64,000 nucleotides of DNA from Cristatella mucedo (lineage: Eukaryota > Bryozoa > Phylactolaemata > Cristatellidae), in NCBI GenBank assembly GCA_009760855.2, contig WPIO01000062.1, forward strand, positions 1,088,001 to 1,152,000, read 5' to 3'. This document shows positions 16,560 through 40,854 of this stretch, piece by piece. The first letter of the stretch is position 1; every line of letters starts with the position of its first letter. The notes under the pieces are model-generated. The model was not told the origin of the DNA. It ran no database searches and worked only from the letters and a program-made list of their open reading frames with translations. Both the position numbers and the translations under genes were made by a program.

Positions 16560-17790
16560 TAAGCGCGAGGCGAGCACATTTTGTCCAGCAGCTTTGTTTT
16601 CTTTGTTGATCAGTGCAAGCGCGAGTCAAAGCGGCCAATGCTTCTCTGCTGCTATATAGAAATGAAGCTGCTAAACCACGCGACATTTAATTCACCTTTC
16701 GATTGCCACCGGGCGCCCACCGCGAGCGTATTCCTTCCTAGGCACGCTGGTAATAATAGCCCTGCCACATGACGGCCCCCGGCAGAATAATTTCGCGCAC
16801 GAGCGCGCTCGCAGAGAGCGTGCCGGGAGTATCGCGCTTCGTCGAGCGGGTTGCCCGCTAGCCTGGGACGTTGGCAGCGCCTGCATCGGCAGCGCGCGCG
16901 CGTCGTCGTCGTCGCTCGGGCTGTTTCCAATATTTTCTCCTGCGGCCGCCTTGTCGCAGCCTGCTCGCACAGAAAGTAGGTCGATGACGACGACGACGAA
17001 GAAGAAGAAGAACCTCGCGAGGTCCGCGGCCGCGGAGCGAGCGATAATTGGCCGACGAGTAGCCGGGTGAGTAGTCCAGCCGGCGGCGGCGTCCAGTGTC
17101 CAGCAAAGTCGAGCCCGTTTGCGAGGAGGGCGCCAAGTGGCACTAGCGAGAAGAGCGAGATCGTCGCACTTCTTCTACAGCAGCAGCCGCAATGGCGGCC
17201 GCGGCTGCGGCTGCGCAAGCAGACGGCGTCCTCGACGACTCAACTGCGCCAAGAGCGTCCGCTGGGAGCGAAGCGGCCAGCGGAGGAACGAGGCTACTGG
17301 CTGACATAGTAGTTGGAAAAGTTCTAGTTCCCGGTGGAGAGCGGCAGGTCGGTCGGGCAGCACGCGGTCGTCCAGATGGCGGCCGGAATGCACGGTATGC
17401 ACGAAATGCCGGTAGCACTGTTGGGACAGGGGGGGTGGTGATGACCGGCCGGTGCAGGTAGCGATTGGCTAATGTTCGGAGCACGCGGCGGTGCAAGCAG
17501 CGCTCGGCCTACTTTTCGGAGTCCCGAGTCTTGGCGCCCTTTCGCGTGAGCGCGGCGCGCGCGCTTCCGGGGGAAGGAGCGAGGTGCCAGGTCGGAGAGC
17601 CGCGCGCCGCCGCCGGGCGGGTGAGCGGCTCACCAGACGGGTACAGTTACCTCACCACCGAGGCCTCGCCTCGGCCGCTCGCTCCGCCCGCGGTCAAGGG
17701 ACCGCGAGCGAAGCGGAGCGGCGGCGGCGGAGTGACTAGAGATCCAAGTCGCGCCGCTCACCAGCCGTAGGCTCGTCGTGCTCAATTTAA
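16560..17790 (+). promoter_or_regulatory. CpG-rich first-exon-like island
   Basis: This is a strongly CpG-rich stretch with GC-box-like runs, a (GAC/GAA)n tract at 16,984-17,012 and an ATG in good context at 17,192. It is among the best-preserved parts of the duplicated block (62,600-63,660). Its 3' half (17,250-17,790) was copied again to 22,457-23,004 upstream of the opsin. Preservation and composition suggest a promoter and first exon. No downstream exons could be tied to it. Confidence 0.45.
17192..17461 (+). CDS. Hypothetical N-terminal exon, Ala-rich start
   Basis: The 89-codon frame begins MAAAAAAAQADGVLDDSTAP after a GCCGCA context. The duplicate at 63,241 begins MAAAASQADGVLDDSTAP and stays open for 68 codons. 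The run LLADIVVGK is kept in both and then GERQVGRAARGRPDGG. The start vaguely resembles the opsin first exon (MAAAAAE...DDS), which could be common descent or shared low complexity. No domain is recognised. It may be a first exon of an uncharacterised or dead gene, or non-coding CpG-island sequence that happens to be open. Confidence 0.25.
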   Translation: MAAAAAAAQADGVLDDSTAPRASAGSEAASGGTRLLADIVVGKVLVPGGERQVGRAARGRPDGGRNARYARNAGSTVGTGGVVMTGRCR

Positions 17791-21080: not shown

Positions 21081-22339
21081 ACTTAAAGGCATATTAGTAC
21101 CGCGAATAGACACGATTTAGCTGCCCCTGATACAGTCCGCATTGAAATCATGGTCACACATGTCTACTTCCGCTTTGAAATACTTTTCTCACTTCAATTC
21201 CCTCTTCGTTCCCCAATGACTCGAGAATGTTGGTGTTCAGTCATATTTGTCAAATGCTCTATCCCTTGAGTTAAAAATAGCCCACTATTAGTTGCATTTA
21301 AAGTAGGTGGAACATAAATTCACCATTCAACATCCTACATATCCAGCTATGAACCAGAATGCACCAGAATACACCAGAAGCGCAAGCTCCTGCTCTGATC
21401 CTGCAGCAGCTGGTTAAAGGTTCGGAGTTTCGCGGCTGTTGCTGCCGAATGCTGCAATCTCTGTGCAGGCGCCGTCGCGCACACATTTCGAGATGCGTTC
21501 GTCCTCTAGCATGGCAGAGGGAACTATCCACACAGCCGCGCCATCGAGGGGCTCCCAATCGGCACGAACGTCCGCCATCACTAAAGCTATCAACGTTAGC
21601 CTAGTCTAGGGGGCAGGGAGCGGTGGTAACATATACTCTTCAATGGACGTAAATCAAAATATTTTCTGGTAAAGCAGCATCGTCAAGTCATCGAACTCAT
21701 TCGCTAATTACTTGCTTCTCCCTCCTAAGTTTCAATAGAGCTGCAATGAATTTCTATTTTTTTTTTAAATTAAATACTTTTAATAATTAGGTAACGTGTA
21801 CATAACTATTTGGGAAATATCTAAGACATTTGTTTTCAAAATTGTTGCATGTAGTGTTTGCCGAGTCTTCGAGTCGTCCTCTCCTCTGGCTCGAGGCTGA
21901 AGGCCAAACGGCGGCAAGGTCGCCTTTACCCAAGACAAATTACCCCGCACCGCCTCGTGCGGCCCACAATCGCATCTCTAATGCACATCTTCCGGAAGAG
22001 CTTCCGATGGCTCCCTCGTATCATTATCAAAGACGTCAGGTCATCCGAATCTTTCAAGTCTGGGTAATTTGAATTTTAACGTAACCATGTTATGGGTTAA
22101 ACTCATTTATTTCTCTGATTTCTATCCAAATGTCTTATTATTATTTTCGAATAATGTCTTATGTTTGGGAGCCCGAGCGCGAACAACCCAAGTGCCTATG
22201 GCGACGGAGACTGCGCTGTCTCTATCATCTATCTTCGGCCAGGACCGCCAAAGACACCTGCACCCGGGGGCAGCAGTTGATTTAAAATCGCCTTTTTCAG
22301 GGCTAGTCGCCAGACCCCGAACGTCGCCGCCATTCGAAA
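21081..22339. other. Spacer upstream of the opsin gene
   Basis: No transposon or gene is recognised. A GC-rich patch with ORFs on both strands (21,298-21,604) shows no known domain. The last ~200 bases are GC-rich and may belong to the opsin promoter region. Confidence 0.45.
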
Positions 22340-22456
22340 GGGCCGCGGCGGTGACTCGTCTCTCGACCGTGGCGTTCTGCGGCTGCACTGACTCGGCTGC
22401 TCACGCTTCTTCGGTCAAAGCTCGCCTGCCTTTGAGTGCTGAGCACCGCCAGGCGC
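22340..22456. repeat. 117-bp direct repeat, left copy
   Basis: It runs from GGGCCGCGGCGGTGACTCG to GAGCACCGCCAGGCGC and recurs at 23,005-23,121 with about five mismatches. The two copies flank the inserted segment 22,457-23,004. Confidence 0.93.
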
Positions 22457-23004
22457 CACTGCGCCAAGAGCGTCCGCTGGGAGCGAAGCGGCCAGCGGAG
22501 GAACGAGGCTACTGGCTGACATAGTAGTTGGAAAAGTTCTAGTTCCCGGCGGAGAGCGGCAGGTCGGTCGGGCAGCACGCGGTCGTCCAGATGGCGGCCG
22601 GAATGCACGGTATGCACGAAATGCCGGTAGCACTGTTGGGACGGGGGGGGGGTGGTGATGACCGGCCGGTGCAGGTAGCGATTGGCTAATGTTCGGAGCA
22701 CGCGGCGGTGCAAGCAGCGCTCGGCCTACTTTTCGGAGTCCCGAGTCTTGGCGCCCTTTCGCGTGAGCGCGGCGCGCGCGCTTCCGGGGGAAGGAGCGAG
22801 GTGCCAGGTCGGAGAGCCGCGCGCCGCCGCCGGGCGGGTGAGCGGCTCACCAGACGGGTACAGTTACCTCACCACCGAGGCCTCGCCTCGGCCGCTCGCT
22901 CCGCCCGCGGTCAAGGAACCGCGGGCTGAGCGGAGCAGTGGCGGAGTGACTAGAGATCCAAGTCGCACAGCTCACCAGCCGTAGGCTCGTCTTGCTCTAA
23001 TTAA
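22457..23004 (+). repeat. Duplicated CpG-island segment inserted at the opsin promoter
   Basis: This is nearly identical to about 17,245-17,790, including the GGAGGAACGAGGCTACTGG block and the CCAGCCGTAGGCTCGTC end. It resembles 17 kb more than the counterpart at 63.3 kb, which has an internal deletion. It interrupts the sequence just before the opsin first exon. Confidence 0.92.
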
Positions 23005-23121
23005 GGGCCGCGGCGGTGACTCGTCTCTCGACCGTGGCGTTCTGCGGCTGCACTGACTCGGCTGCTCCAGCTTCTTCGGTCAGAGCTCGCCTGCCTTTGA
23101 GCGCTGAGCACCGCCAGGCGC
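23005..23121. repeat. 117-bp direct repeat, right copy
   Basis: This is the second copy of 22,340-22,456. It ends seven bases before the first ATG of the opsin, so it probably lies in the 5' UTR or core promoter. Confidence 0.93.
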
Positions 23122-23128: not shown

Positions 23129-23336
23129 ATGAAGATGGCGGCCGCCGCCGCCGAAGCCTCGGTGGAGCTTCCGGACGACTCGGCGAACGATGCAGTCGTC
23201 GCGGTTGCAGCGAATCTCACAGTCCCTTTTCTCCCAGCCGCTCAGTGGCCGAGCGAGCGGAGCGATGCAGTGAGGTTCTCGTCCCGACTCAGTCCCGCCG
23301 TCAGCACCATTCTCGGATCGTACCTAACAGCCATAG
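23129..23336 (+). CDS. Opsin exon 1 (N-terminus and start of TM1)
   Basis: It has 69 codons plus one base and ends ...GSYLTAI|G with donor ATAG/GTGAGC. The first ATG (23,129) and the second (23,135, AAGATGGCGG, a stronger context) are both usable and differ by two residues. The Ala-rich start and the N29-L-T glycosylation sequon form the extracellular N-terminus. TM1 starts near residue 57. Confidence 0.85.
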
Positions 23337-26300
23337 GTGAGCTTCCGGCGCGCCGATGAGATTCGTTCGTCCGCTCCTTCGATTCGCCGTCTCTCGTGAC
23401 AGCTCTTGCGAAACAGCTCCCTCCAAGAGGTGCAGCAACCGGCGCGGCGCTTCCGGCTTTTTCCGAGATTAAGTTTTCTTTGGGCGCTATAGAAATTGAT
23501 TATATAAGAATTATATAACCCGTGACCAGACCGGTGCCTTACACCAGGCGTTCACCACGAGCTTCTTGGCAGCTTTCCGAGCAGCCCCTAGCAGTTGGTG
23601 ATGCATTGGGATGCATGCACGCAGGAGTCGACGGGCTGCCAACAGGCTGCAAAGACTGCGATGGCGGCGGCAGATGGCGGCTTAATTTGCGACCGCACGG
23701 GTGTAGCCTGAGAATGTGTTCCATGGGTACTGGGCCATTTGGAGGCGATAGCCATACCTCGACCTTGCCTATTCTATACGAGCCGCCGTGCGGCCGCAGT
23801 GCGTCTCTTGCACCTAGGGCGACAGGTGGTTGACTTCGGCCCGAAGACGCTCACGCTAGTTGACGCTACGAAACCTGACGAGTCAGAGTAGATGAGTCGC
23901 AGGCGCCATTCGAGCCCCCGAAGCGGCCACTCCGGATCTTCGCTTCCGGTTTTGCGACCGCTCCTCTTTCTAGGAGTTTGCAGCTTGGCAATCAACTCGC
24001 TGAGCACCTCCTCGGCGCTCGGTCGACGGCGACTCCAGCTCAAGCCCGCCGAGCACTTCGTGCTGTGGCTCAACGTCACCGACATTGGCATGGTCGTGTT
24101 CACGTTTCCGTTCGCCATCGCTTCGTTTTTCGCTCGACGGTGGCTGTTTGACGGATCCGGTTCCTCGTCGTCGCAGATCTGCTAAGCGCTGGATTGGATG
24201 CTATGGAGCTTTTGTCTCGGTAGTTTAATACCGAGAGCCCTGGACGGCTAACCTAGAGGTTATTCGATCGTTTTTTCCCACTCAAACTAAACATTTTTGG
24301 CACCCAGTTCCCAGAGCAGATGCCCTCAGATTATTCTGTCTTAAAATTAGAAACGCCTCGCTTTACCAATATCTAGTAGTTCCTTGCGGATAAAAATGAC
24401 CGCAGTATTTGGCCATAAATTCTGTGTCAAGCCAAGCTTCGTATTATTATTACGGGCTTAAAATTCGTACATTGTGGCCGGAGAGCTTTTTAAATTAAAA
24501 GCAAACCGCGACAACCGAAGACCTGGCGCATCATCCAGAAGCAGCAGGCCGTGCGTGTCCCAGCAGGCCAAGTGAGTCCCCTCAGCAGCAGGCCGCTGCG
24601 TTCCCCAGCAGGCCGCCGCCGCCGGCTTGTCCCGCGAACCGCGAGCGGCTGTGGCTACGAGGTAGTTAAGTCGTCGCAACATCTCGCTGCGTCTGCTCTA
24701 CCGTCAGTCGCCGTTAGCGACGAGCTTCACTCGTTCGCAAACTGAGCGGCTTCCCGTGGGGGAGGGAGAATTCTAGGCTTTTGGAGCATATGCACTGAAG
24801 GCACGGTTGTAAAGGATTTGAGCTTAGTTGCATGCAAAGTTAAACGACTCTTGTCAGAAGAGGTGGTAGCAGGATGTGAAACCTGGTTTAGAAGTATCTC
24901 AGATAGGTACGCCGGCACCATAGAAAGGCCTAAAAGTGACAGACAGAATCAATGCGAATAAGCCACTTGATGTTAGCCAGTGCTAGTCGGCGAGAAGAGA
25001 TGTGACGTGGCAGCTCCGACATGTACGACAACCAGCCCTAGCTGAAGAGTTTCGCACCAACTGCGTAAGCGTCTTAGTGCACAGCCGGGGGACCTGCACG
25101 GAGAATTGCCGAAGTTGAAATGCCGGTTTGTCCCAAATGCACGGACTAACTTCGCTGCGGTAATCTCATCTAAGCAGGCCGGAAGTCATTCAGTATTGCG
25201 TAGCTGAAAATGGGTACGTTCAATTGTGAAGCTGACACTGCCATCCAGCGATCACTCATTTTGCTAGCCGAATGCCCATTCCTTGCAGAGGCTACAGGGG
25301 GTGTTCTGGCCGGCCCATTTTGAGGCACAGGCATTCGACTTTCTGGGTTACTAGGATAGCATGTAATTTTATGTAATGTTGAGGCGCCGACATTTGGCTT
25401 AGGCAGCGACATCTGGCTTAGGAGCAATAAAAGTCTCGCGGTTTAAAGATGCGATCCAGAATCGAAAGTGAGGCTGGACGGGTGGGCTGGTTGGGGAGCT
25501 CATTATGCAACGCAAAGGGAATGGCACCTGGTCTGCTGCTACCGCTTACCGCTGGTTCCCATGCCGAACGATCTTCAGCCAGTGGCGTAGCCAGAACTTT
25601 CAGATAGAAGGAAAGCCCTGCCGCCAGTTATAAATACATCGAAAGTCGCTGTCTTTTATTCGACACGTGAGCCTGTGGCTACGCGTAGATTGAAACCATG
25701 CGACGACGATCTCATTGCTCGTTGCATGCTTTCTTCCTTAAACGTACAGCAGCAGACGTCGTCGAGGTAGTGCACCGCCGTCGTCGTTCCAAGGCATGTC
25801 TTGCTTGATAAGTTGTAGCGCGCTGAGCGAGCAGCTCACGTTCGACGCCATTACGCTTCCCGGAGTCACTTATCCTGCCTGGCGGTCGGCGCGCGGGTAG
25901 TCGGTGCTCAGGGGTTTGAGCGAGCAGATGCTGCCTGCACACTATCTCTCTCGCTCGCCACTTCGCCCGTCTAGCCAAAATGGCCGACGCCGAGCCTGCG
26001 GGCGCGGCGCGCGCGTGTGTGGCTCGAGCGACAGCGGCAGTCGCGCCGGTGACGGCTCGAGGCGAGGCGACGGTGCGGCCAGCCAGCGACCGCGGCTCTG
26101 CGCCTAGCGCGTCGACAGCGACGAACGACGAAAATTCAAGAGACGCGCCGCCGCCGCCGCGTCAGGTCGCCAATAGCGAGGCGGTCGATGAGTGAGCGCT
26201 TTGAGCCCGGGCCGCGAGACTGCGACCTGAAGGCGGCGAAGTGCACGGCGGTTAAATAAAGGAAGAAAGGCGCAGCGGCGGCGGCGGCGGGCGGCGGCGG

Positions 26301-26389
26301 CGGGCGACGTATCGGGCTCGTCGGTCGCTCGCCGAGACCGATTAGCCGCCGCCGCCGCAGCCGCCCCCAGTCCCTCTTTTGCCGGCGCG

Positions 26390-26424
<35 letters not shown>

Positions 26425-28235
26425 TATATGCGCATGCGCGGGTCGCAGTCATTCGACCGGATATGCGGCGTGCGACAATACTAGGTACGCTCTGCGAGCT
26501 GTTGCAATTGAATACACGTTCGTCGCCGCTCCTCGCGGCTGCCACCGCTGCTTGACGACGAGGATGACGTTTTTTGTGTAGGGATTTTCAGCTTGGCAAT
26601 CAATTCACTGAGCATCTATTCGGCGCTCGGTCGGCAAAGAATCAAGCTCAAGCCCGTCGAGCACTTCATGCTGGCACTCAACATCGCCGACATGGGCATG
26701 GTCGTGTTCACGTTCCCGTTCGCTATTTCGTCATTTTTCGCTCGACGGTGGCTGTTCGGCGAAGCTAGTACGGTGCGGCAGCGAAGCGAAGCGCTGCGCC
26801 GCGACGCGTCGCTTCGCCTTTTTTATCGCTGCCCAACGAGCGTGAAGCGCTCCGGACAGCCGAGGTTTAAACAACAGTAGAAACCTTAACCTCGGGTTCG
26901 CGGCCGGATGGGGGTCATGGGGGTCAACTTCCCGCGTTCACCGCCTGCCGGAGTGCGGCAGCCCGCTGCGGCGGCGGCAGCCAGTTTAGCAGCGATGGGG
27001 GAGGAAGGGGAGAGAGAAAGAAGGCCGCTCTTCTCAGCGCCCCCGGCGCCTCTCCTAAATAAATAAATAAGTGCTAGCTGATTTAACAGCCTCTTTTGTA
27101 TAGCGACAGAAGAGCTTTTACGGCTATCACCACATCTTGCAGTGCCGATACAGGGTCGCCCACTGCAGGATTCGAGCCCACGACCTCGGGGCCGAGGTCG
27201 TGAAAAGCAACCGCCTTACCTAGTGAGCCATTACGGCTCACCGCCTCGAGCTGCGTATCCCCCGGCGTAGTGTAGTTAGTTATGACTCACGCAGCATTGC
27301 TACCGCGGCTAGTTTGCAAGCCTGCGGAGAGAGATCATTTACTGCTTGCTCATCGTCTTATTCTTGTTCCACTGCAGTGAGCAGCCGTCTCATTCCGTTG
27401 CGCTATAAAAATATGAACGCTTTTCCGATCGAGGCACGCACCAACTAGCGCACTGGCTGACTACGCCGTATGCACACCAGCGACGCCGGCCGCTCCTGTC
27501 TTAAGCCTGATTTAGACGGTGAGTCTTGCTTCCTACCAACTAGAGTCTAACTACAGTCTTCTAGTTTGTAGGAGTTTTAGACAGTAGTCTTGCTCTAAGT
27601 CTGGCTTTCTACTCGCTCCGCCCACGGAGCGTTCTTGGGATGGCAATAGCGTTTCTCTACGGCCAGGCTTTTCTAACGGAATTACCGGTAGAATGAAACC
27701 TGTCCGCTATAGTCTTTATCGCTCGCCGCCTCAAAATCTGATTCATATACCCCGAACTCAGTGTGTCCCATAAACAGGGACTCGCTAGGAACGCACCGAC
27801 GATTTCGCTGGTAAAGTCGTCCGCCATTTCTTGCTAAGCAACGCAGTAGGCGTGGTTACCTGCTGAGTCTTGGCTGAAAAAGTAGAACCGAGTGTGGCTA
27901 CTGAGTCTTCGTCGAGTCTCCCCTTAAGTCTGAACCACCTCCCGCGCTATTGGCGACGTTTACACCGAACACTCGAGTTGGTAGAAAGCAAGACTCACCG
28001 TCTAAACCAGGCTTTAGTTAAGTGCTCGCCTCTCGCGATATCCACCCAACCTTGTACCGTAGCTACGTCTGCCACGGCATGCCGAGCTAGAGTCAAGCTA
28101 GTGCCCGAAGTTTCCCGGCGCGACGCCATGCCAAACTCGGAACCATTAGCTGCAATATACCTCGCCTGAGGTCTGGGGGCAGGGAGTGGCTCGAGACGCT
28201 GTAACTCGGTGAGTCCGACCGCAGTTCAACCTTGC

Positions 28236-28310
<75 letters not shown>

Positions 28311-31300
28311 CCTATCTCTTTCCCAGTGGTCGAAGTAACGCTGCGAAGCAACATTCGGATAAAAAATATGCATAGCTAGCAAAAGCCTTCTACGGAGCTT
28401 GCCGGGCTCGTGCTGCTGTAACGTGGGGACTCAGGTGCGGTTGACTCAGCGGCTTATGTCGATGCACATTTACACCGCGTTTACTGAGTGGAGCGCCGAG
28501 AACTGTCAAAAGATCAAGGTACCTACCGGGAAGCACTCGGTAGCTCTTGAGGGGGAAATTCAAGAAAATATCTATAACATTTATCCTACAATCGAATATG
28601 TCTTTATAGTACCTTTCGAAAGACAAATATGTTAGAACTGGGATCGGAAGTTCTGACGACTTCCGCATGAAAGAAAAATTCGTTATGCAAACCACGCCTA
28701 ACCCGGATGTAAAACGAAAGCAAAAAATCTACAAATAGAAGATTTGCCGATCTCTGCATCATATGCGACTTGTATCCCAACTTGTCGAACCTTGGTAGAT
28801 CGCTATAGATGCTTAAAGCTTGTTGAGGTGCATACTTGTGACTTTTATACAGCTTCATTTCCAAGGTTGGTAGGTGCCTTGTAAATTAAATAACAGCTAA
28901 TCTTTCACCTTTCGGAGTAAAACTTTGTATGTGAGTTCATCTCCGCTTTTTTTACCCTATTCTTTAATATTTTTGATTTCGGTTTGATACAAATGGGTCT
29001 ATGTGCCCACAATTACGGAACATAAAGCTCCAGGACGTTTGATGACGTTTGATGACGCATTTCAAATTTAATTCCGATACGTGAAATATCAGTTAAGCCC
29101 GGCTGCCGTTGTCTGGTGACTCGATAACATCACTAAAGGAAGTGTCGCGTTACCCCGAGTTCACTCCACTAGCTTTCTGCAGCTAAGCTCAAAAGTTTCC
29201 ACATCTTATTACTTGCTCTATACTGATATTCTTTGTCATCTAGTGTTTTTTTTGCAAGGCTACAGAATAACTTGCCCTGCCCCGCAAAATCATAGCCGTG
29301 GGCTGTTTCCATGAACGCCGGCACTTCTCCAGGGCGCAACCGACACCTTCTGTACAGTAGCAGATGTTTGTGCATTACGAAGTACACAGAGGGTATATGT
29401 TTGTTGTTCATTCACAGACTGGCATTTTTTTAATGGCGAGACTTTTTAGGACAGCTGCAAAACAGCCCGCTCCAGCTCTCCTCCGACATGAGCTAACTAA
29501 AGGGATGCTAAAAGCCGAGCCGAGCCAACCCAGACCACGTGTGCTTGAGCTACCGTACGCAGTTAGGATCGGCATTCCGTATTTCCTGAACTGAACTTCA
29601 TCTCGATGTAGTGGCCATCTCGGACAGTTCTGTTGGGTACCGTCCGGGCAGTATTTTGCCGTATCACCTCAATGTTTGCTTAACAAAAACTGGCGTAAAA
29701 ATTAGCGGTGTTTTTCCGAAAACTGTATGGTGTTGATGAGGAGGGATGTGCATTATTTAGTTATTTGTTTTTTGCGATTAGTGAGCTTCCATAGCACCGG
29801 CATAGCGGTATTTTTAAGTGTAGCAATCGTGATGCTACTAACTTATCAGAGGTAGTGCAGGCAAGCAGCCTGGTATAATTTCTAAGGAAATAACAGTTAC
29901 ATTTATGACCCAGTGAGTCAGAATAGCGAGCGGCAGTGGCTGCGGCGTCGGGAGCGGGCCGCCTGATTCGGAAGCCATTCAGACAGCTTGGACGGAGCAA
30001 GAGAGTGAAGCGTGCCGCGAGCGAGTGACGGGTCCTCGAAGTCGAAGCCCCCTTGCTCGCGGGGCAGCCGGTGTAAGCTACAGATTGGCAAGAAGTGGTG
30101 CAAGTCTGTGGCATCCGTGACGTTCACAGCAGACCAAACTAGCGGCCAAGTGCTGCACCAACTGTGGGGCGTCTTACTGCTGCAAAAGTGGCTGTGGGCG
30201 GCTAGGCGATAATTAAATTTTAGCGTTCTTCAAGTCAGTGACTGCTGTCACTGCAAAGAATGGTTCTGCCAGAGCAGACCTTTCTTTCGCTGACACCCGT
30301 ACCGTTGGCTTGCCATACAGCTTAGGCGATTACGTTGCGTACGCGACAGTCACATTATCGCGTCCGCGAAAGCAGCGCCGCTTGCGAACAGCCGTCACTT
30401 CTCTGTGCGCCTTTATTCAGCATCTTCTGCTGGGCCTTGAGGCCGTCGCCAGGTCTAGCGGCACCACGGCGCAGCACCACGGCGGCCTGGTAGTAATCGA
30501 GTAGCCAATCGCACGTGACGCAGCTCTGTACAGCTAAGCGTAGTTCGGAACGTGGATGATTTTTTGTCATGTCGCTCCGATACCGTCGCCGCTCATTTTG
30601 CATTTTCAAGCACGCTTCCGGCTGAGAATATCCGGGAGTCTCAACACTTGTGTGTAATTTAATACTCGACTGAGGGGGGAAGAAATGAGTTCCCAGCCCT
30701 GAGAAAGAAAGAGAGGTGCAGAGAGCTGGTGGCTGGAGGCGCGGAGATCGTGGCATCCCTCTACAGTCTGTGGAGACAACATGTCCATCACGAGGCCAGA
30801 GCGGTCAGCATGACCAGAGCTAATACCATACTTCGCTCATACCGCAGGACGGCGGCGGTGATATGTGACTTTTCGGCAGTGTTTTCCAGACCGAAACAAC
30901 GTATCAACAAATAGATAGACAGCGCCCTGTAACATTTTTTATTGTACCTGTTTCTCTCAGCCGTGACACAAGCGTCATTACTCGATAGCTTGTCCCCCCA
31001 AAAGAATTGAAAATGGCCATTACTTTACGCAAAAATTACTCTCGTGAGCAGGTCAAAGGTAAATTTGAAATTTTCCTATTGTCCAGAACTTTGCACATAT
31101 AGCTATAGCTACAAGTCTGGTGGTCAGTGGAAAAATTCCTAAATTGTAAATACATTTTTATTAGGTAATAAAAATAATAAATTATACAGTAATCAAATTC
31201 AGATGAAATAAATATAAAATGCAAAAGGGTTCTGTATTCGATGCATATGGATTCAGTATTGATCGCGAGATGAATTCATTGAGGCACGGTATACGTATAC

Positions 31301-34300
31301 AGGACCAATTATTCCATGCATGAATAATACATTACAGATATTAGCATCTTTTTAATAATACATTGCGGTAATATAGTGGCATAAATACAGGAGCCTTAAG
31401 CCAATCAGTTTAGTTTAGTTCTTGTTTAAACCGTACTTGTTTGATCTTGTTCAGTCCGTGTAGTGTGGGGGTCAGGTCTCATCCACCAGACCAGTCACCG
31501 ATGGAGTCCCTCAAGGGTCCATCCTTGGTCCGTTGCTGTTCTCCATTTATACTCAACCTCTGCGAAAAGTGATTAAGGCCCATGAAATAGGATATCGCTG
31601 TAATAGGATATCACAATGTCCAGTTGTGTCTTAAGGTTCTTTTAAAATGTCGTCAAGTAGGGATGTCATTGTGACACCAGTCGGAAGCGAGTTCCAAGGT
31701 TTGGGAGCAAACGACCCTAAAGCGAGGTCTCCAAAGGATTTGAGGTTCGAAAAAGGTATAGCTAAACGATTTGAGGCAGAAAAGCGAGTGGCACACTGCT
31801 TGGCCTGGCATGGAGTAGTTCTGAAAGAGAAGCTAGAGCCAGAGAATGAAGGGACCTAAAAATAAGCACCAAAACCTTGAAGTCGATCATCTGCTTGATT
31901 GGAGGTTAGCGAAGGTCGGAGAGAAGTGATGCTATTGACAACTGCGACGCTCACGACAGTAAGCGCCTGATTGCACAGGCCGTTCGACCATTACGCTCTG
32001 AGTTACAGAAGTCGAGATGAGCTATAAAAAAATGCGTGGACCAATTTTGATGTAGCATCTCTGTCAAAGCAAGCCAGGATTTTAGCAATGCTACGACGCC
32101 GAAAAAAGGCAGAATTGACTGTGGAGCCGACGTGGTCAACCACTTTGGAACAGGCAGCTGGAATTCGTCCAGATGGAATAAGAAATATGCTCATGACGCC
32201 GATTTTAAGCGATCTTCCCCGTTTCAGAGTCACTTGATTTGTTCTTAACAAGTGTGTTGGCTATTGGCATTTAATTTTAGACAGTTTGCTGGCATCCATT
32301 TGCAAATGTCAGTAATTTATGCAGCAAGGGAGTTTAGAGAATTCGTAGGAGAATTTGCTGGAAGGAGAGGAGGGAGCCAAGAAAAGGTACAAATGAGTGT
32401 CATCTGCATAGAAGTGAAAGCCTAGGTTGTGTTTGGCAATCAAATCGGCAAGAGGGAGAGTATAAACTGTAAAAAAACGGACCGAGCTCAGAGTCCTGAG
32501 GTACCTGGTACTTCAGTCGTTCATAGGATGACCTTTGCTCGTTCACATCAATACTCTGGAGTCCCCCACTTAGATAGCACCTGATTCATTGCAGTGCAGT
32601 GCCAGTGATGCCCAGACGAGATGAGAGGTGCTCGAGAAGGACTTGGTGATTAGTTGTATAAAACGCTGCAAAAAAGATCAAGCAAAACAGAGAGACTTGA
32701 CCCAAGACTGAATTCCTGAGAAGGTCGTTGTACACCCAAAGCGATGTTGACTCTGTGGAGTGATTAGCTCTAAACCCAGACTGGAACTTTAATGCTAAGT
32801 TTGAGAGGTCAATTTAAGAGTTCAGCTTATCCGTCACAACTCATTCAAGTTGTTTTGATAGAAGCGTTAGAAGCGAGACGGGAGGAAGCTGGTCAAGATC
32901 TCTTGGCCTAGTTTTGCTTTCTTAATTAGTGGTCTAACAGTGTCAAATCAAATCGCTTCGCTGACACGAGAGAGCTGCTCGGATAGATGTGCGTGGAAAT
33001 ACCGCTCGCTTGTCCCGTGCGGCTCGGAATCGAGTTTGTATGTGATTTCGGCTTACACGCCAGCTCATCCACGAGTCTCAAAGTCGTGCCGGTCCATATA
33101 AGGGAACGCGTTTTATTTCTTCCTCGGGCTCACTTGACGCACCTCAGTGAGTATAGAAATAAGTGACGAGACCTGACTGGGTGCCTTGTGGTATGATGCA
33201 CTCGGCTCTGCGAGGTCATTGGAGACGTCGAAACGATGACAGTGGCGGATCTTCCACCAGGTGGTTGTACCAACTTCCTCGGCGATCCCTACCTTTAGAA
33301 TAATGAGCACCTCCATGCACACGTTCACAGGCGGGACTGGCCGAAGCAGACCGACTTCGCTGTTGGGAGCCGATATTTTAATTCGAAGCTGCTGTTGGAC
33401 TCTCCGTGGATGGTGCTAATGCCAACACTGCACAGTGCAACGAATTCCCCAGGAATCTTACTGCGGAGAAAGCGTCTTCCAGTAGCTTCATCGTAGTCGA
33501 TCGCGGCTTTCTGGTTTATCAAAAGGCGGAAAAACTATATAAAGCAGATGGAAATTCCAGTGAAAAACTAGGGAATAACGGTATATTAGGTCCTTCTGAG
33601 CTCATATCCTTCATGCTGGTCTTGACAAACTTAGGGAAAAAGCGAGACTTATGCAGAAGGGCAAGGCGACAGTTGAACTATAAATCTCGAAGTATACTTC
33701 TAAATCTTGCATTATCATTTTTCTCTAATCGTATAAAGTATAGAATATACATTACTTGGTAATTATATGATGTTTTACCCGACTAAATGTGAACCAGCAA
33801 TTGTGAGTGTGTCCTTTTTTCTTTGAAAATGGGTAAATATCAAATGTATTGGTGTCCGAGCACACGACATTTGTAGTGAATGATAAAAAAAATAAATGAA
33901 ATAGTTTATTTGTATAACACTCCAAGAGAAATTAATCTCTACTCATGCGCTTCACATATGCCACAGGGCTTGAGCTCAAGACCTCGGCCAGACCTTGGTC
34001 AGGGCGAGCACCTTAACCACTGGGCCAAAACAGCTCTGCCATTTTCAATCATTCTGAGGCACAAGCTGTTGGTAGATAGTACTTTCAACTCAGAAACATT
34101 GGTGTCGATGCATAGTGTAAGGAATTTTTAGGCTATGTTTGCTTTTCAGGGGGAACATACATGCATGCTTTATAAAATAAAATGATCGACTACCAGCCGG
34201 ATTCTACCTTTTTCCCAGCCTGCGGGAGCAGTGGAAGACTCGTCATTGGTTTCGTACAGTGGCAGCCATATGAACCGCTGCAATCATCCATAAACGTGGC

Positions 34301-37300
34301 GTATACGTGCCAGCCTTTATCTAGTGTTTTTGAGACGACGGGTGAGCTGCCGAGACTCCCGTCATACTAGCATTTTAGACAGCGGAGGGAGCGCATGGCT
34401 GCGGTACCTCCCTTAGGGCTTCAGTACTCATTTTTCACGTCACACGAAGCGCCCGAGCGCCCGATGGTGTAGCCCCTTCACCACCCTTTGCAATTTTATG
34501 GCCGGCTTTTCGAGCGAAGTTACTCCTCTTAAATCGATTTAGAGAAGGCTCGAGGAGTCTTCCCAACATTATCGCCTTCTCTTTCAAAGACTGCCGCCGC
34601 TCAACTCGTGCATTCGGAGCTGAGCCACTGATAGCGATGTCCCTGCATTGTCGAGTTCTTATCTGAGCCTGTCTGAGTATGTCAACTTCCCTAGACTCCT
34701 GTTGCTGTCAGGGCGAACTGGAGTGCGGGAAGCTCACTTCCGACGATTCTCGCTCTCTTAAGGCGACTGCTTTTCGGCTGGCGAAACCCGCATTTGCTGA
34801 GACCTTGAGCAGCGAGGCGGGTCCTCCGAGATAAAAATGCAAGGCACTCGCTCCGCATCGTTCGCCCATCGGAAAGACGACCTCGACCTCGGCCGCTTTT
34901 CTTCGGCTCGAGCTTTGCACGGCGTTTGGCCGATGCAACGTGGCGCCGCCAGGTCGAAGACGCGAGCTGACCGGAGCGCCACTCCTCGCGTCCTCTCCTC
35001 TGATCTCGGTCGCGGAGCACGACGTGGCAGGAGCCAGCTTCGCAAGCGTCCACTCGCTCCGCTCTCGAAGACCTCGACGCGGTGGTCGCACGCGCCCTTC
35101 GCACGCCGCCGCCACCGAAACGAGATTACAGCTCGTTTACGGCTTGTTTTCTTTCCCAGGTTGCGCCGCAGTCGGCTTCCTGTCCTTCCTGTGGGGCATC
35201 GAGAATCTTATGATCGTGGTCATACTGGCTGCGACGCGCTTCGTCATCGTCTGCTATCCGCAGCGAGGTAAGAGATTGTCGGCCGCCGGGGCGCACCCAC
35301 CGGAAGACGACCGGCCAGGGAAGTGAGCGTCCGCCGGAGACCCGCGTTTGCCGTCCGCCGCGAGACGGCCGCTCGGCGAGAGCAGCGCCCCTGGCGTCCG
35401 CTGCGTACCCATTGGCCTAGCAGGCTCCGAATACCCAATCATCGGGTGCTCGAGCTTCTTTGAGCCGGGCAATGGCAGAGGCTCGGCAGAGACGCCGTTC
35501 GGCTCACGCGACGGCCCTCAGTGACTTCCTCAGGGTATAGCAGCAGCACTGTGCCTGATTCAAACGGCATTATGTCATATCCAGTCTCGCAGTCACTGCC
35601 TCCAGGTGTCTCCTGCCACTGCCTGCAGCCTCGTTTCTGGCCGACGGCCGTCACTGCTCCGCTGCCGCTGAAGTCGTTAGAGCTGTTGCTGGTCTGCGCC
35701 GTGAATTCTTTTGCTTGGTCATTCTCCTTTCTTCGACGCGCGTGCCCCAGTGCCAATGTAGCGTACAATTTATTCGACGTTTAGCTTCACTTACACGCAA
35801 AGCTTAGATAGCACCTGGCTCAGGCAAAGTGCCGCATCAAGTGCACCGAAGCAGCTGCTGCATCAGATGCATCGACGCAGTGCCACATCACATGCATTGA
35901 TGTGGCCGACCGAGTCCTACGCTGAGGCAGTCAAAGTGCACAGGCCACATTGCTTAGTGATGCCTGTTCATGCATGCTGTTTATCAAGCATGATATTACT
36001 CACCATTCAATCGCATTTCCTTTTGCAGCAAATGTAAATCGCCTAGAAAGATATTGAGTTCTCTGGATGGGCTTTATCAAGTGCATTATTGTTATTATGC
36101 ATACTGTGGTCCTTCGAGGAAAGTCGCTCCTTCTTGTGCAATACCCTCAGCTAACTACCGTTGGATACTTGGCTCTAGTTCGGCCACTAATTAGGAAAGA
36201 TCAACGAAATTTGAGTTACGCGCTAATTTTACAACATTTTACTAGTTTATTTCAGATTTCGGTTAGATCATTGTTGATATACATGTCTATAGTTGCTCTG
36301 AAAACCAAGCTTCTGGACGTTTGATAATATGGGCAGCAGAAAATATCTAACAATAATCTGAGCTAGCGAAATGTGGCTCGAGTAGAGCTGAAAGTGCATT
36401 TCAAATTTTACTATGATCCGTTTATTATTGGCCAGGTTATGGAATTTAAAGGGTACAAGGCTACACAGAAATGAAGTTTTTAAGAGTCACAAGCATGCAC
36501 CTCAACAGCTTCACGCATACACCTCGATTTATCAAGGTTTAGAAATTTGGCACAAGAAACGTTTATACTGCCGAGATCTCTAAATTTTTTATTGTAGATA
36601 TTTTGCTTCCAGTTACATCCGGGTTAGACATAGTTCGTTTAAACCTGTTTTCCTTTTATATGGAAGTCGTTAGAACTTCGGATCCCAAGTTCAACATGTT
36701 TGTCTTTTGAAAGCTACCTTAAACAAGTATTCATTTTTGGACCTATTTTATAAGTATTTATTTTTCTTGACATTCCGCCTTGTTGTGCGTGATTATAGGG
36801 TACTTTTCATCTATTGATAATCATCTTTTTCAGCCTGTATGCAGTGCCTAGAAAGAGATTCAGTTATCTCTTGGTTCGCTAAGTAAATGTATTATTATTA
36901 TTTTTGATCTACTCTCTCAAATCAGGGTTCCTAACAAAAAGCCCAAGGCACAGCAAGCGCCGTTACCACCCTCTACATCCGACAGCCTCTAGCTTCTATG
37001 GGCGGTGTCCTTTGCAACGCGATAGCAATCTCCGGTACGGATGGCCAGCATTACAATGACGAGCGCCAGCGGTGGGCTCGCCGGTTATATTTTGGCAATG
37101 CTGGGTGCGGTGCAGCGTTTGCTCTGCATGCGTCATGTGCTTACTGCCCATCAGGGCTCGAGAATGCAGTCCGCCGGGTTTATTGGCAGCTATGTTATCT
37201 CTGCTCTCCGGACTGCAGGGTGAGCGAGGCCTCTCCTGATTGGTCGCGTTGTTGTGGCTCCGTCTCGGTAGTTCTGCTCTCGAAGCGCCCAGACCGCTGT

Positions 37301-38922
37301 GCTATTGACTCAGTTCTCAGCCCCAAAAAGGAACAACGAGTAAAGCACCGTGCTTCTTTTTAAGATAAAGCCCGTCGGTGCGACGTATCCAGCAACAGGG
37401 CTTGTAGAACGCTTAAGTGGCTGGTGACTTCTGTTCATAGTGCATACGGTGCAGCAACATTTTCGGCGCGGCAATGGCTGCTTTGAAGAGAAAGAGATGA
37501 TAAGCTGGCGTCGCGTCCATTCTAATTTGCAGAGTCCCGCCTGAACTTACGAACGACTGTCGGCGTTACAGTAGCGTCGGTGATCTACAGTATATTATGG
37601 TCCGCCATGCCCCTGGGCATTTGGGGATCGTACGCCCCCGAACCTTACGGGACAAGTTGCACGATCGACTGGGCAAACTCGGACAACTTTTCGTACGTGC
37701 TCTCCTCTTACGTGTTCGTTTTTCTCATTCCCTTTGTCGTCATCATCGGATGCTACGCCAGCATACACCGCGTGACGGTACGATCTTCCAAATCGGCTCA
37801 CACAGCGTCTTCAGGACGGCATTTCACTCCGTCTAAACCCATAGGCGGAGCGGCTAAGGTGACGGCTCGAAAGCGACTTCCTACTGCCAAGGTAACAGTG
37901 TGAATAGCTAAAAGGTGCGCGACCGAAAGACTAGCTTTTCACAATTCCAATAGTGCGACCTAGCAAACAAACCCCCTTCCTAGTGGGTCCCTTCAAATTA
38001 GGGTTGGAGCGAGGAGTGTACCAATTGTCGTTTGATCAATCCGCAGGCTCACAGCATCGTGCGTACAGAGCTTCTGCTTTATTTTATCATCGGCGTTGCC
38101 TTGGCTGCCAGGCATCGTGATTCTTTCAACTGTATTGTTAGTGGCTGTCATAAGGTACGATTACGTCGAGTCATTCTGATACGAATAGGAAGCCAGCAAC
38201 CGAGGGGTGCACTATACATACAGGTGTGCCATAGCGGTTCCCGCTGCATCCGAAGTCTAGCGATACGGCCATTCTGCTGCCACCACAAGTAGCCAGTCCG
38301 GGAAAGGTCAAGGTTAAGCGCGTATCAATTTTGCGTTACGCCTATTCTGTATGTTTATCGTTCGTTTTTTCTTACTTGCGAGCATATTAAGGTTGCTGAC
38401 TGGTCAATGACATTATTTCCTACGGAGGACTTTAGAGCGCTTGGAGGACAGCGAATGACGCATCCCTATTATCTAGCTAAGCGAAAGGGTCGGCTCGCCC
38501 TCACTTAGTGGCACTATCTCAAGTCTCTTTCGCTACAGCTCGGCATACTGCTCAGCGCGTCGTACTTCGTCTGCTGGTTCCCGTATGCGGTCGTCAGTTT
38601 CTGGGCTGCAGTGGCAGACGCGTCGACGCTGCCGCCTATTGCCACCGCTCTGCCGGTGATGCTCGCCAAGACGTCGGTGCTGTTCAATCCCATCCTGTAC
38701 CTACTGACGAACAGACGCTTCCGTCAGAGACTGGTGCAAATCAGTTCACCCCATCGCAGCAGCTCGCTGACGGAGACGAGTCAGAGCTCAAAGTCACGAG
38801 TCAAATCTCATGGCACGGGGCAGCAAGAGCGTTCCCAACCGCTAGGAGGCTACTCCAACAACACGACGCCCCCTGGCGGTTCGTCAGATTTGCCGCCGAT
38901 CGAGCCGCCCATGAGTATCTGA
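23129..38922 (+). CDS. Opsin (retinal-binding GPCR), five coding exons
   Basis: The join is 23,129-23,336; 23,974-24,159 or 26,582-26,767; 35,160-35,267; 37,533-37,891; 38,539-38,922. It gives 414 residues and the phases fit at every junction. A light-sensing G-protein-coupled receptor in membranes is expected. Seen: sequon NLT at 29-31; TM1 with N77; TM2 with D106; C133 and C210 for the disulfide; ECL2 as YAPEPYGTSCTIDW, where E204 aligns with bovine E181; V136 where vertebrate visual opsins have E113; TRF (157-159) in place of E/DRY; CWFPY (299-303); Schiff-base K331 in LAKTS; NPILY (337-341); helix 8 as NRRFRQRL; a Ser/Thr-rich C-tail. The ECL2 pattern and counterion point to a Go/peropsin/neuropsin-type or other non-visual class. 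The exact class needs a tree. Both versions of exon 2 fit, so at least two isoforms are possible. Confidence 0.92.
23337..23973. other. Opsin intron 1
   Basis: A 637-bp intron. A short remnant of a SINE-2-like tail (GAGATTAAGTTTTCTTTGGG, then CGCTATAGAAATTG) is at 23,464-23,500. Small ORFs on both strands have no recognisable content. Confidence 0.7.
23974..24159 (+). CDS. Opsin exon 2a (TM1 end, TM2)
   Basis: The acceptor is CTCTTTCTAG/GA; phase 1 in and phase 1 out; the donor is G/GTTCCT, a weak match. It encodes SLAINSLSTSSALGRRR, then LKPAEHFVLWLNVTDIG and FTFPFAIASFFARRWLFDGS. It is 186 nt, the same as exon 2b. Relative to 2b it has W101 for Ala within TM2 and DGS for GEA at the exit to ECL1. 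It is the less typical of the two versions. Confidence 0.8.
24160..24754. other. Opsin intron between exons 2a and 2b, first part
   Basis: No gene is seen. A short run with four CAGCAGGCC motifs is at 24,540-24,625. Confidence 0.6.
24755..25430 (-). mobile_element. LINE C-terminal relic in opsin intron
   Basis: It matches in antisense the pattern AAGGATTTGAGCTTAGT, GGCCTAAAAGTGACAGACAG and GCCAGTGCTAGTCGGCGAGA. This is the C-terminal coding region of the local LINE families. It is heavily decayed. Confidence 0.6.
25431..26581. other. Intron, CpG-rich with a TA microsatellite
   Basis: Bases 25,960-26,370 are very CpG-rich with (GCC)n. 26,388-26,429 is (TA)n. A 71-codon frame from 25,980 runs up to a donor-like GA/GTGAGC at 26,193, but its phase does not fit exon 2b, so it is not included in the gene. 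Confidence 0.55.
26582..26767 (+). CDS. Opsin exon 2b (alternative to 2a)
   Basis: The acceptor is TTTTTTGTGTAG/GG; phase 1 in and phase 1 out; the donor is A/GTACGG. It encodes FSLAINSLSIYSALGRQ, then KLKPVEHFMLALNIADMG and FTFPFAISSFFARRWLFGEA. LALNIADMG and WLFGE are closer to the general opsin pattern than exon 2a. Of 61 full codons, 44 residues equal those of 2a. Including both exons would keep the frame but duplicate TM2, so exclusive use is expected. Confidence 0.82.
26768..27056. other. Opsin intron, start of the 8.4 kb intron
   Basis: Nothing coding is recognised. The frame continuing from exon 2b stops at 26,880. Confidence 0.6.
27057..27240 (-). mobile_element. tRNA-derived SINE, family 1
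   Basis: The minus strand starts TGAGCCGTAATGGCTCACTA, with box B GTGGGCTCGAATCC, and ends in (TTTA)n. It lies in the opsin intron before exon 3. Confidence 0.9.
27504..28013. mobile_element. MITE with 43-bp terminal inverted repeats
   Basis: The left end AGCCTGATTTAGACGGTGAG (27,504) and the right end, read in reverse complement, AGCCTGGTTTAGACGGTGAG (28,013), agree over 43 bp with three mismatches. TTA stands on both sides (27,501-27,503 and 28,014-28,016). A 3-bp TTA duplication is typical of PIF/Harbinger elements, so a Harbinger-derived non-autonomous element is the likely class. It holds no transposase. Confidence 0.87.
28234..28316. repeat. (CT)n microsatellite
   Basis: About 80 bp of CT in the opsin intron. 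The Glu-Arg-rich minus-strand frame over it is an artefact. Confidence 0.95.
28595..28870 (+). repeat. Dispersed repeat, inverted partner at 36.5 kb
   Basis: Blocks such as CTAACCCGGATGTAA, GACAAATATGTT and TGTTGAGGTGCATACTTGTG match the reverse complement of 36,470-36,725. It is probably an old transposon fragment of unknown family. No coding capacity is seen. Confidence 0.7.
28871..31459. other. Opsin intron, no gene recognised
   Basis: No LINE or SINE is visible. A 133-codon minus-strand frame (30,355-30,756, containing RSDMTKNHPRSELRLAVQ and CDWLLDYYQAAVVLRRGAAR) is the longest non-repetitive ORF here. It has no recognised domain and I could not find splice partners, so it is left unassigned. 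Confidence 0.5.
31460..31610 (+). mobile_element. LINE reverse transcriptase fragment
   Basis: The plus strand reads TDGVPQGSILGPLLFSIYTQ, then PLRKVIKAHEIG, which is the conserved RT motif B region of CR1/L2-type elements. It is only about 50 codons long and abuts an antisense LINE relic. Confidence 0.8.
31620..32770 (-). mobile_element. Antisense LINE relic in opsin intron
   Basis: It matches the antisense pattern of the local LINEs: GAAGCGAGTTCCAAGGTTTG, AGGTCTCCAAAGGATTTGAG, CTGATTGCACAGGCCG, and AATCAAATCGGCAAGAGGGA at the YADD-side end. It covers the RT thumb to the C-terminus, with all frames broken. Confidence 0.75.
32771..33887. other. Opsin intron, no gene recognised
   Basis: The first ~200 bases may be further LINE relic. 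A 118-codon plus-strand frame (33,406-33,762) has no recognisable domain and runs into A/T-rich sequence. Confidence 0.5.
33888..34035 (-). mobile_element. SINE family 2
   Basis: On the minus strand the tRNA-like head (TGGCCCAGTGGTTAAGGTGC, then CTTGAGCTCAAGCCC) is followed by a degenerate LINE-like tail and (TTTA)n. It aligns with 14,403-14,554 and 60,836-60,985. Confidence 0.85.
34036..35159. other. Intron end, CpG-rich before exon 3
   Basis: Bases 34,740-35,150 are GC- and CpG-rich with long overlapping open frames on both strands. One plus-strand frame is open from ATG at 34,940 straight into exon 3. This could be a coincidence of GC content or an internal promoter. No separate gene is supported. 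Confidence 0.5.
35160..35267 (+). CDS. Opsin exon 3 (TM3)
   Basis: The acceptor is TTTCTTTCCCAG/GT and the donor is CGAG/GTAAGA; 108 nt, phase 1/1. It encodes GCAAVGFLSFLWGIEN, then VVILAATRFVIVCYPQR. C133 is the disulfide cysteine of TM3. The helix ends in TRF where most opsins have E/DRY. E146 sits one position after bovine E122. Confidence 0.92.
35268..35929. other. Opsin intron 3, first part
   Basis: The GC-rich part (35,268-35,520) has ORFs on both strands without recognised content. Near 35,840-35,910 a short degenerate tandem of CATCA/GCACTG-like units is visible. Confidence 0.55.
35930..36102 (+). mobile_element. 5'-truncated LINE tail
   Basis: Plus strand: GCATGCTGTTTATCAAGCAT, GCAGCAAATGTAAATCGCCT, AGAAAGATATTGAGTTCTCT, then GCTTTATCAAGTGCATTATT. 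Confidence 0.85.
36190..36730 (-). repeat. Dispersed repeat, inverted partner of 28.6 kb
   Basis: Bases 36,470-36,725 match 28,595-28,870 in reverse complement. A flanking piece (36,190-36,430, including ACGTTTGAT and GCATTTCAAATTT) seems to match 28,920-29,080 in direct orientation, which would mean one part is inverted in one copy. The direct part is weaker. Confidence 0.6.
36780..36906 (+). mobile_element. Short LINE tail
   Basis: Plus-strand pattern GCAGTGCCTAGAAAGAGATT, CAGTTATCTCTTGG, then AAATGTATTATTATTA. Confidence 0.75.
36907..37532. other. Opsin intron 3, last part
   Basis: No gene is recognised. Two overlapping frames (36,998-37,363 and 37,041-37,223) have no domain. Confidence 0.55.
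37533..37891 (+). CDS. Opsin exon 4 (TM4, ECL2, TM5, loop 3)
   Basis: The acceptor is TCTAATTTGCAG/AG and the donor is CCAAG/GTAACA; 359 nt, phase 1 in and 0 out. It encodes TM4 (VGVTVASVIYSILWSAMPLG), ECL2 with E204 and C210, TM5 (YVFVFLIPFVVIIGCY) and a basic Ser/Thr-rich third loop ending RKRLPTAK. The loop is about 45 residues, longer than in bovine rhodopsin. Confidence 0.95.
37892..38538. other. Opsin intron 4
   Basis: 647 bp with no repeat recognised. An acceptor/donor-bounded hydrophobic stretch at 38,069-38,154 is 86 nt long and would break the frame between exons 4 and 5. Confidence 0.65.
38539..38922 (+). CDS. Opsin exon 5 (TM6, TM7, C-tail)
   Basis: The acceptor is TCTCTTTCGCTACAG/CTC. 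It encodes LGILLSASYFVCWFPYAVVS (TM6), then TM7 with PVMLAKTSVLFNPILYLL. K331 is the chromophore-binding lysine. NRRFRQRL is helix 8. The cytoplasmic tail is rich in Ser/Thr (SSPHRSSSLTETSQSSK), typical of receptor-kinase targets. The stop is TGA at 38,920-38,922. Confidence 0.95.
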   Translation, partial: LGILLSASYFVCWFPYAVVSFWAAVADASTLPPIATALPVMLAKTSVLFNPILYLLTNRRFRQRLVQISSPHRSSSLTETSQSSKSRVKSHGTGQQERSQPLGGYSNNTTPPGGSSDLPPIEPPMSI

Positions 38923-40852: not shown

Positions 40853-40854
40853 AA

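What the first reader, a model, noticed from the sequence alone, without database searches (positions are those of the whole stretch)
23974..26767. Two alternative versions of opsin exon 2
Exon 2a (23,974-24,159) and exon 2b (26,582-26,767) are both 186 nt, both enter and leave in phase 1, and share 44 of 61 encoded residues. They cover the end of TM1, the first cytoplasmic loop and TM2. Both fit exon 1 upstream and exon 3 downstream without breaking the frame. Keeping both would add a second TM2, so mutually exclusive splicing is the natural reading. Differences (A versus W in TM2, GEA versus DGS before ECL1, RRRLQ versus RQRIK in loop 1) sit where they could change spectral tuning, folding or G-protein contact. 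Mutually exclusive exons in an opsin would be unusual.
Basis: partly seen in the sequence, partly recalled or inferred. Interest (0 to 1): 0.88.

Follow-up and report, generated by a model that had tools for sequence, protein, structure and literature searches.

The report
Opsin gene with duplicated second exon
An animal light-sensor (opsin) gene carries two different copies of its second exon that could be swapped to make two versions of the protein, but one copy has such a poor splice signal that it may be rarely used or dying.

Summary
The window holds a complete animal opsin gene on the + strand (23,129-38,922): five exons, with two versions of exon 2, each 186 nt and phase 1/1, sharing 44 of 61 residues. 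Either version gives an uninterrupted 414-aa seven-helix opsin with the retinal lysine. The two are homologous far beyond chance (BLAST E 1.7e-50), but only within the exon: the flanking introns are unrelated, although at the exon's dS (0.43) they should still align.

Mutually exclusive splicing is plausible but not shown. For it: dN/dS 0.34, significantly below 1; no stop or indel; an excellent 2a acceptor; double inclusion would repeat the TM2 region. Against it: the 2a donor (CCG|gttcct) scores like a random GT, the 2b donor is also weak, and 2a departs from conserved opsin residues. Double inclusion or skipping stays in frame, so nonsense decay would not enforce exclusivity. I found no convincing RNA pairing or second start exon. 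No animal relatives or transcripts could be searched. I put current use of 2a at about one half, and a decaying 2a at about 0.4.

The parts
23129..23336 (+). exon 1: ATG, N-terminus and first half of TM1 (ends phase 1, donor TAG|gtgagc, 5.6 bits)
   Evidence: ORF and splice sites
23974..24159 (+). exon 2a: end of TM1, ICL1, TM2, ECL1 (acceptor strong, 6.9 bits; donor CCG|gttcct very weak, -5.0 bits)
26582..26767 (+). exon 2b: same region, closer to opsin consensus, probably the original copy (acceptor 3.7 bits; donor CTA|gtacgg weak, -1.3 bits)
35160..35267 (+). exon 3: TM3, beginning at the conserved cysteine; ends YPQR; carries T-R-F where D/E-R-Y is usual
37533..37891 (+). exon 4: TM4, ECL2 (PEPYGTSCTIDW), TM5, ICL3
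38539..38922 (+). exon 5: TM6, TM7 with retinal lysine (MLAKTSVLFNPILY), C-terminus, stop; a poly(A)-like AATAAA follows at 39,137
24160..26581 (+). 2,422-nt intron between the two exons 2: GC 0.55, no Met-bearing alternative exon 1 with a TM1-like half found

Best explanation
A tandem-duplicated internal exon in an animal opsin gene, used as alternative versions of the TM1 end, ICL1 and TM2. Shown: a complete opsin gene with two homologous, frame-compatible exons 2, protein-level constraint on the pair, and similarity limited to the exon. Inferred: 2b is the original and default exon; 2a arose by a small, exon-sized copy (or the exons were kept alike by gene conversion while the introns diverged); exon 1 splices to either 2a or 2b and then to exon 3, giving two 414-aa opsins that differ at 18 residues. 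The very weak 2a donor would make 2a a minor or tissue-conditional choice that needs an activator, with 2b used otherwise. Exclusivity would be a matter of splice-site competition plus non-functionality of a product with a repeated TM2 region; it is not hard-wired by spacing, intron class or nonsense decay.
For: Both 414-aa ORFs intact, single stop. 7tm_1 122.9 and 129.7 bits. Best solved-structure match of the 2b version is Kumopsin1, E 4.3e-33 over residues 40-354, with the retinal lysine aligned. dN/dS 0.33 (NG86, bootstrap 95% 0.16-0.70) and 0.34 (codon ML, 2dlnL 7.2 against 1). 12 of the 18 residue differences score 0 or more in BLOSUM62. 2a GC3 0.79, in the range of the other exons (0.61-0.80) and above the whole-sequence GC of the two neighbouring introns (0.58, 0.55). 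No stop or indel in 2a; on a neutral branch of d = 0.2 this has probability 0.058, 0.009 or 0.0014 for indel/substitution ratios 0.05, 0.10, 0.15; at d = 0.1 it is 0.23, 0.09 or 0.04. 2a acceptor at the 99.8th percentile of 4,677 AGs in the window. No second copy of exon 1, 3, 4 or 5 found in the window by tblastn.
Against: 2a donor -5.0 bits: 0.45% of donors drawn from a recalled, human-like matrix are as weak, and it ranks at the 50th percentile of all 3,526 GTs in the window. The 2b donor is weak too (5.0%), and a better-scoring GT 5 nt further on would break the frame. 2a fits opsins less well: Pfam 20.5 against 27.1 bits for the exon alone; against solved structures 2b alone matches 41 sequences at E up to 1, many of them rhodopsins, and 2a only 8, none an opsin; W and T in TM2, S for Y in TM1, D for the G of the WxFG stretch. 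Six of 18 differences are non-conservative. A drifting 2a with a constrained 2b (dN/dS about 0.55) is not rejected. No transcript or related species could be examined.
Confidence: 0.5

Rival explanations
1. 2a is a decaying or near-silent duplicate (pseudo-exon): once spliced, now without a working donor, so the gene makes essentially only the 2b protein.
For: 2a donor no better than a random GT; identity drops to 15 of 24 nt across the last 18 exon nt plus 6 intron nt, against 18-22 of 24 in the seven other segments; lower opsin fit and changes at conserved residues; dN/dS 0.55 not rejected.
Against: Intact ORF with no indel at a divergence where drift usually breaks one; excellent acceptor; GC3 0.79; GT still present at exactly the homologous place. 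A recent loss after long use would be compatible with all of these.
Confidence: 0.4
2. The exons are alternative but not by mutually exclusive splicing: 2b is reached from a second promoter and first exon in the 2a-2b intron, or both exons can be included or skipped as cassettes.
For: The 25.7-26.5 kb stretch is GC-rich (0.63) like the stretch before exon 1 (0.66), with TATA-like repeats; both-included (476 aa) and both-skipped (352 aa) reading frames are open.
Against: Four phase-1 ORF tails in 22.0-26.6 kb passed my hydrophobicity and donor cuts; exon 1 is the only one with a Met and has the best donor. Two Met-less tails (donors at 24,875 and 25,666, hydropathy 0.62 and 0.66 against 1.32 for exon 1) lie between 2a and 2b and would need a further upstream exon. 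Both-in repeats the TM1-end/TM2 unit and skipping removes TM2, neither likely to work (inference).
Confidence: 0.08
3. 2a and 2b are leftovers of two tandem opsin genes, one of which lost its other exons, or an assembly artefact.
For: Tandem opsin genes are known (e.g. a thrips LW cluster within a 30-kb region in PMC7570057, passages).
Against: No second copy of any other exon found in the window; flanks unrelated and exons 18% different, so not a duplicated haplotype.
Confidence: 0.02

Closest known systems
Tandem-duplicated, mutually exclusive exons as defined for WebScipio predictions (PMC3228551, passages)
   Same: Neighbouring internal exons, equal length, same phases, GT/AG sites, strong homology, one protein region.
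   Different: Exclusive use in transcripts not shown; the 2a donor is near-random, and the paper names pseudo-exons missing correct splice sites as a source of false positives for an earlier similarity-based method.
Insect ecdysis triggering hormone receptor ETHR-A/ETHR-B, a GPCR with mutually exclusive exons 4A/4B (PMC5572281, passages)
   Same: A GPCR whose transmembrane part is swapped by alternative exons, with isoforms of different ligand sensitivity.
   Different: There the alternative exons are 3' exons (TM4 to C-terminus); here they are internal (TM1 end to ECL1), in an opsin.
[quoted passage not shown]
   Same: Alternative splicing within an opsin's helix bundle.
   Different: RGR-d lacks most of TM6 and is described as inactive; the passages mention no duplicated exon.
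Kumopsin1 (PDB 6i9k)
   Same: Best solved-structure relative; aligned along the helix bundle, including the retinal lysine.
   Different: Kumopsin1 has D-R-Y where this one has T-R-F. That Kumopsin1 is a jumping-spider r-type opsin, and that this gene's motifs recall neuropsin/peropsin-type (group 4) opsins, is from memory.

Membership tests
animal (type II) opsin | seven-helix rhodopsin-family receptor | tested here: met
   7tm_1 122.9 / 129.7 bits, cut-off 30.5
animal (type II) opsin | retinal-binding lysine in TM7 | tested here: met
   K in MLAKTSVLFNPILY aligns with the TM7 lysine of Kumopsin1
animal (type II) opsin | D/E-R-Y motif at end of TM3 (usual, not the defining feature) | tested here: not met
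   T-R-F instead, aligned to D-R-Y of Kumopsin1
neuropsin/peropsin/RGR (group 4) opsin | phylogenetic placement | not tested
   No set of reference opsins was at hand; the resemblance of PEPYGTSCTIDW and PYAVVSFWA to neuropsin/peropsin is recalled
mutually exclusive exon pair | similar length and same reading frame | tested here: met
   186 nt each, phase 1/1
mutually exclusive exon pair | homologous encoded sequence | tested here: met
   44 of 61 residues; E 1.7e-50
mutually exclusive exon pair | functional compatible splice sites on both exons | tested here: inconclusive
   AG/GT present on both; acceptors good; donors -5.0 (2a) and -1.3 bits (2b)
mutually exclusive exon pair | each transcript holds exactly one of the two | not testable with these tools
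   No transcripts available
mutually exclusive exon pair | enforcing mechanism (short spacing, U2/U12 clash, nonsense decay or competing RNA pairing) | tested here: inconclusive
   Spacing 2,422 nt; all introns GT-AG; both-in is 476 aa and open; pairing not convincing against shuffles. Regulation by trans factors cannot be excluded

The most novel reading that the evidence does not exclude
A single opsin gene makes two photopigments by swapping a duplicated TM1-ICL1-TM2 exon, chosen by tissue or stage through regulated activation of a near-null donor. This would be a splicing route to opsin diversity in place of the usual gene duplication.
Probability: 0.4. Interest if true: 0.8.

Novelty: new variant of a known kind. 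Interest (0 to 1): 0.5.

Why it matters
Opsins are usually diversified by copying whole genes (general knowledge). One gene yielding two helix-bundle variants by exon swapping would be a different route, and ICL1/TM2 can affect folding and coupling. The listings of my searches of open-access PMC text showed no report of mutually exclusive or duplicated internal exons in an opsin; several listings were capped, most listed papers were not opened, and closed-access papers were not searched. If 2a is dying, the locus is a useful snapshot of how duplicated exons are lost.

Tried and rejected
Whole-gene tandem duplication: not supported within the window, as tblastn found a second copy of exon 2 only. 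Second first exon or promoter for 2b; the stricter first scan had a cut that missed exon 1 itself, so it was repeated with looser cuts. Alternative donors for 2a: GTs at 24,140, 24,167 and 24,170 give the wrong phase, those at 24,220 and 24,259 lie behind the in-frame TAA at 24,183. Competing RNA structures: longest same-strand and complementary words between introns were at shuffle level in three of four tests; the fourth was a GCC-type 14-mer (reached in 1 of 30 shuffles). Of 16 duplex-energy tests, four beat all of their 12 shuffles; rerun with 60 shuffles each, those four were equalled by 8, 4, 4 and 5 of 60, and the other 12 were not rerun. Rfam (gathering cut-offs) and tRNA scans of the window: nothing. 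The promoter/terminator scan is of bacterial type and carried no weight. Inverted repeats around the exons: 53 pairs, 25 shown, mostly GC-rich or AT-repeat, not judged meaningful. Protein relatives (2b version only): none at E <= 0.001 among the 7,997 scored candidates of the large protein set, none in viral contigs (13 pattern matches, none confirmed), none in prokaryote genomes (145 pattern matches, none confirmed). These collections are not built from animals, so the misses say little about animals. Structure prediction was not attempted: the spliced protein is not a contiguous translation of the window. Searches translated the exons in the wrong frame and were superseded; the exon 1, 3 and 4 ends were one or two bases off and corrected.
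Full report
Observation. Exons 2a (23,974-24,159) and 2b (26,582-26,767) are present as described. I rebuilt the gene from the sequence: exon 1 23,129-23,336, exon 3 35,160-35,267, exon 4 37,533-37,891, exon 5 38,539-38,922, all on the + strand with GT-AG introns. A poly(A)-like AATAAA follows at 39,137; it is one of 13 such hexamers between 23.0 and 40.5 kb, so a weak argument. Exon 1 ends in phase 1, both exons 2 are 186 nt and phase 1/1, and exon 3 begins in phase 1 right at the conserved TM3 cysteine. With either exon 2 the product is 414 aa with one terminal stop; with both it is 476 aa and with neither 352 aa, also open.

It is an opsin. Both versions match Pfam 7tm_1 (122.9 and 129.7 bits, cut-off 30.5). 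The 2b version's best solved-structure match is Kumopsin1 (E 4.3e-33, residues 40-354), with the TM7 lysine, the TM3 and ECL2 cysteines and NPxxY aligned. The D/E-R-Y motif is T-R-F here, and C+3 in TM3 (the bovine counterion place, recalled numbering) is valine, while a P-E precedes the ECL2 cysteine. Its ECL2 and TM6-7 motifs remind me of neuropsin/peropsin-type opsins; that is recalled and untested.

The pair is homologous, and only the exon is. BLASTN finds 84% identity over 178 nt, E 1.7e-50, beginning 3 nt before the exon and ending 11 nt before its 3' end. dS is 0.43 and dN 0.15. Introns 200 nt to either side are no more alike than shuffles (87 of 300 and 77 of 300 shuffles reach the observed scores), although at d = 0.43 with simulated indels the test had power 1.00 on both sides. 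So either little more than the exon was copied, or the exons have been kept alike (selection, conversion) while the introns turned over. tblastn found no second copy of any other exon in the window.

Selection. dN/dS is 0.33 (NG86; bootstrap 0.16-0.70) or 0.34 (codon ML, 2dlnL 7.2 against 1). This says the pair as a whole was constrained. It cannot say that both were: 0.55, roughly what one drifting and one constrained copy (dN/dS about 0.1, my assumption) would give, costs only 1.5. The lack of any stop or indel in 2a is the stronger argument: at d = 0.2 on one neutral branch it has probability 0.058, 0.009 or 0.0014 for indel/substitution ratios of 0.05, 0.10 and 0.15; at d = 0.1 it is 0.23, 0.09 or 0.04. 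A 2a that was constrained for most of its life and recently released is compatible with all of this. GC3 of 2a (0.79) is like that of the other exons (0.61-0.80), above the GC of the neighbouring introns (0.58 and 0.55). Of the 18 residue differences 12 score 0 or more in BLOSUM62 and 6 are non-conservative.

Splice sites. With recalled human-like matrices, acceptors score 6.9 bits (2a, 99.8th percentile of 4,677 AGs) and 3.7 (2b, 98.1th). Donors score 5.6 (exon 1), -5.0 (2a), -1.3 (2b), 6.0 (exon 3) and 2.8 (exon 4). The 2a donor stands at the 50th percentile of all 3,526 GTs in the window and the 2b donor at the 83rd; 0.45% and 5.0% of donors drawn from the matrix are as weak. No alternative 2a donor nearby keeps the frame: GTs 24,140, 24,167 and 24,170 are out of frame, and those at 24,220 and 24,259 lie beyond the in-frame TAA at 24,183. 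A better GT 5 nt after the 2b end (1.6 bits) would break the frame; the 2b end used here puts the G-to-C spacing of ECL1 as in Kumopsin1. The species' own donor preferences are unknown; its other three donors here look canonical.

Which copy is original? Probably 2b. As isolated exons, 2b scores 27.1 bits against 7tm_1 and 2a 20.5, both under the cut-off; 2a alone also touches an unrelated transporter family (PF13536) below its cut-off. Against solved structures at E up to 1, 2b alone matches 41 distinct sequences with rhodopsins among them, 2a alone 8, none an opsin. Against Kumopsin1 the BLOSUM sum is 87 for 2b and 70 for 2a, though identities are nearly equal (18 and 17). 2a replaces Y by S in TM1, A by W and by T in TM2, and the G of WxFG by D. 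At some of the 18 positions 2a is nearer to Kumopsin1 (L at position 21 and V at position 30, for example), so the asymmetry is moderate.

Mechanism. Exclusivity is not automatic. The two exons are 2,422 nt apart, so steric blocking between them is unlikely; all introns are GT-AG; double inclusion and skipping do not create a stop. Selector-like shared words and pairing between introns gave nothing convincing: three of four word tests were at shuffle level, the fourth was a GCC-type 14-mer (1 of 30 shuffles); four of 16 duplex tests beat all 12 shuffles, but with 60 shuffles those four were equalled by 8, 4, 4 and 5. Three of these four involve exon 2b flanks and two of them the same tile at about 34,960-35,110 before exon 3, a weak lead at best. 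A second promoter for 2b is not supported: of four phase-1 ORF tails passing the cuts in 22.0-26.6 kb only exon 1 has a Met, although two Met-less, less hydrophobic tails lie between 2a and 2b, and the stretch before 2b is GC-rich with TATA-like repeats. My most likely account is splice-site competition with 2b as default and 2a as a minor or conditional exon (0.5); next, 2a decaying (0.4).

Precedent. Candidate mutually exclusive exons are defined by length, frame, splice pattern and homology, all met here on paper; an earlier similarity-based method is said to give false positives in regions with pseudo-exons missing correct splice sites, and alternative promoters are a false-positive type for the exon-based method (PMC3228551, passages). 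Human duplicated-exon substitutions are described as rare, mostly ancient, with mostly conservative substitutions (PMC9741552, passages). A GPCR precedent exists in ETHR exons 4A/4B (PMC5572281, passages). My ten text searches of open PMC papers were seen as listings, some capped (for example 20 of 79, 20 of 58, 15 of 45); no listed title or abstract start reports a mutually exclusive or duplicated internal exon in an opsin. I opened passages of six papers. In the thrips paper the mutually exclusive exons are those of neuropeptide genes (PMC7570057, passages). RGR-d is an opsin splice variant of another sort (PMC9368030, passages). The Limulus opsin paper reports intron positions of arthropod opsins and nothing of this kind in the passages I saw (PMC4898813).

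Limits. The question is therefore open and would be settled quickly by RNA data.

Noticed in passing
35,160-35,267 (exon 3): The opsin has T-R-F in place of the D/E-R-Y motif at the end of TM3 and valine at the place of the bovine TM3 counterion (recalled numbering), in both isoforms; this hints at altered G-protein coupling or a photoisomerase-like role.
   Followed up: partly
22,338-23,121 and 17,243-17,790, 63,286-63,627: Just upstream of the start codon a 119-nt direct repeat (22,338-22,456 and 23,003-23,121, 96.6%) frames a 547-nt repeat that recurs at 17,243-17,790 (96.7%) and in three pieces near 63.3-63.6 kb (80-93%).
   Followed up: no
27,500-28,017: Element with 47-nt terminal inverted repeats (91%), like a small DNA transposon, in the intron after exon 2b.
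   Followed up: no
27,055-27,242 with copies near 3.5, 8.1, 40.5, 54.9 and 60.1 kb: About 185-nt repeat family (85-89% identical) with a tRNA-promoter-like box, resembling a SINE (resemblance recalled).
   Followed up: no
31,622-32,938, 40,849-42,143 and others: Several copies of a LINE-like element; 40,967-42,112 (+) encodes a 381-aa ORF that looks like a reverse transcriptase (judged by eye).
   Followed up: no
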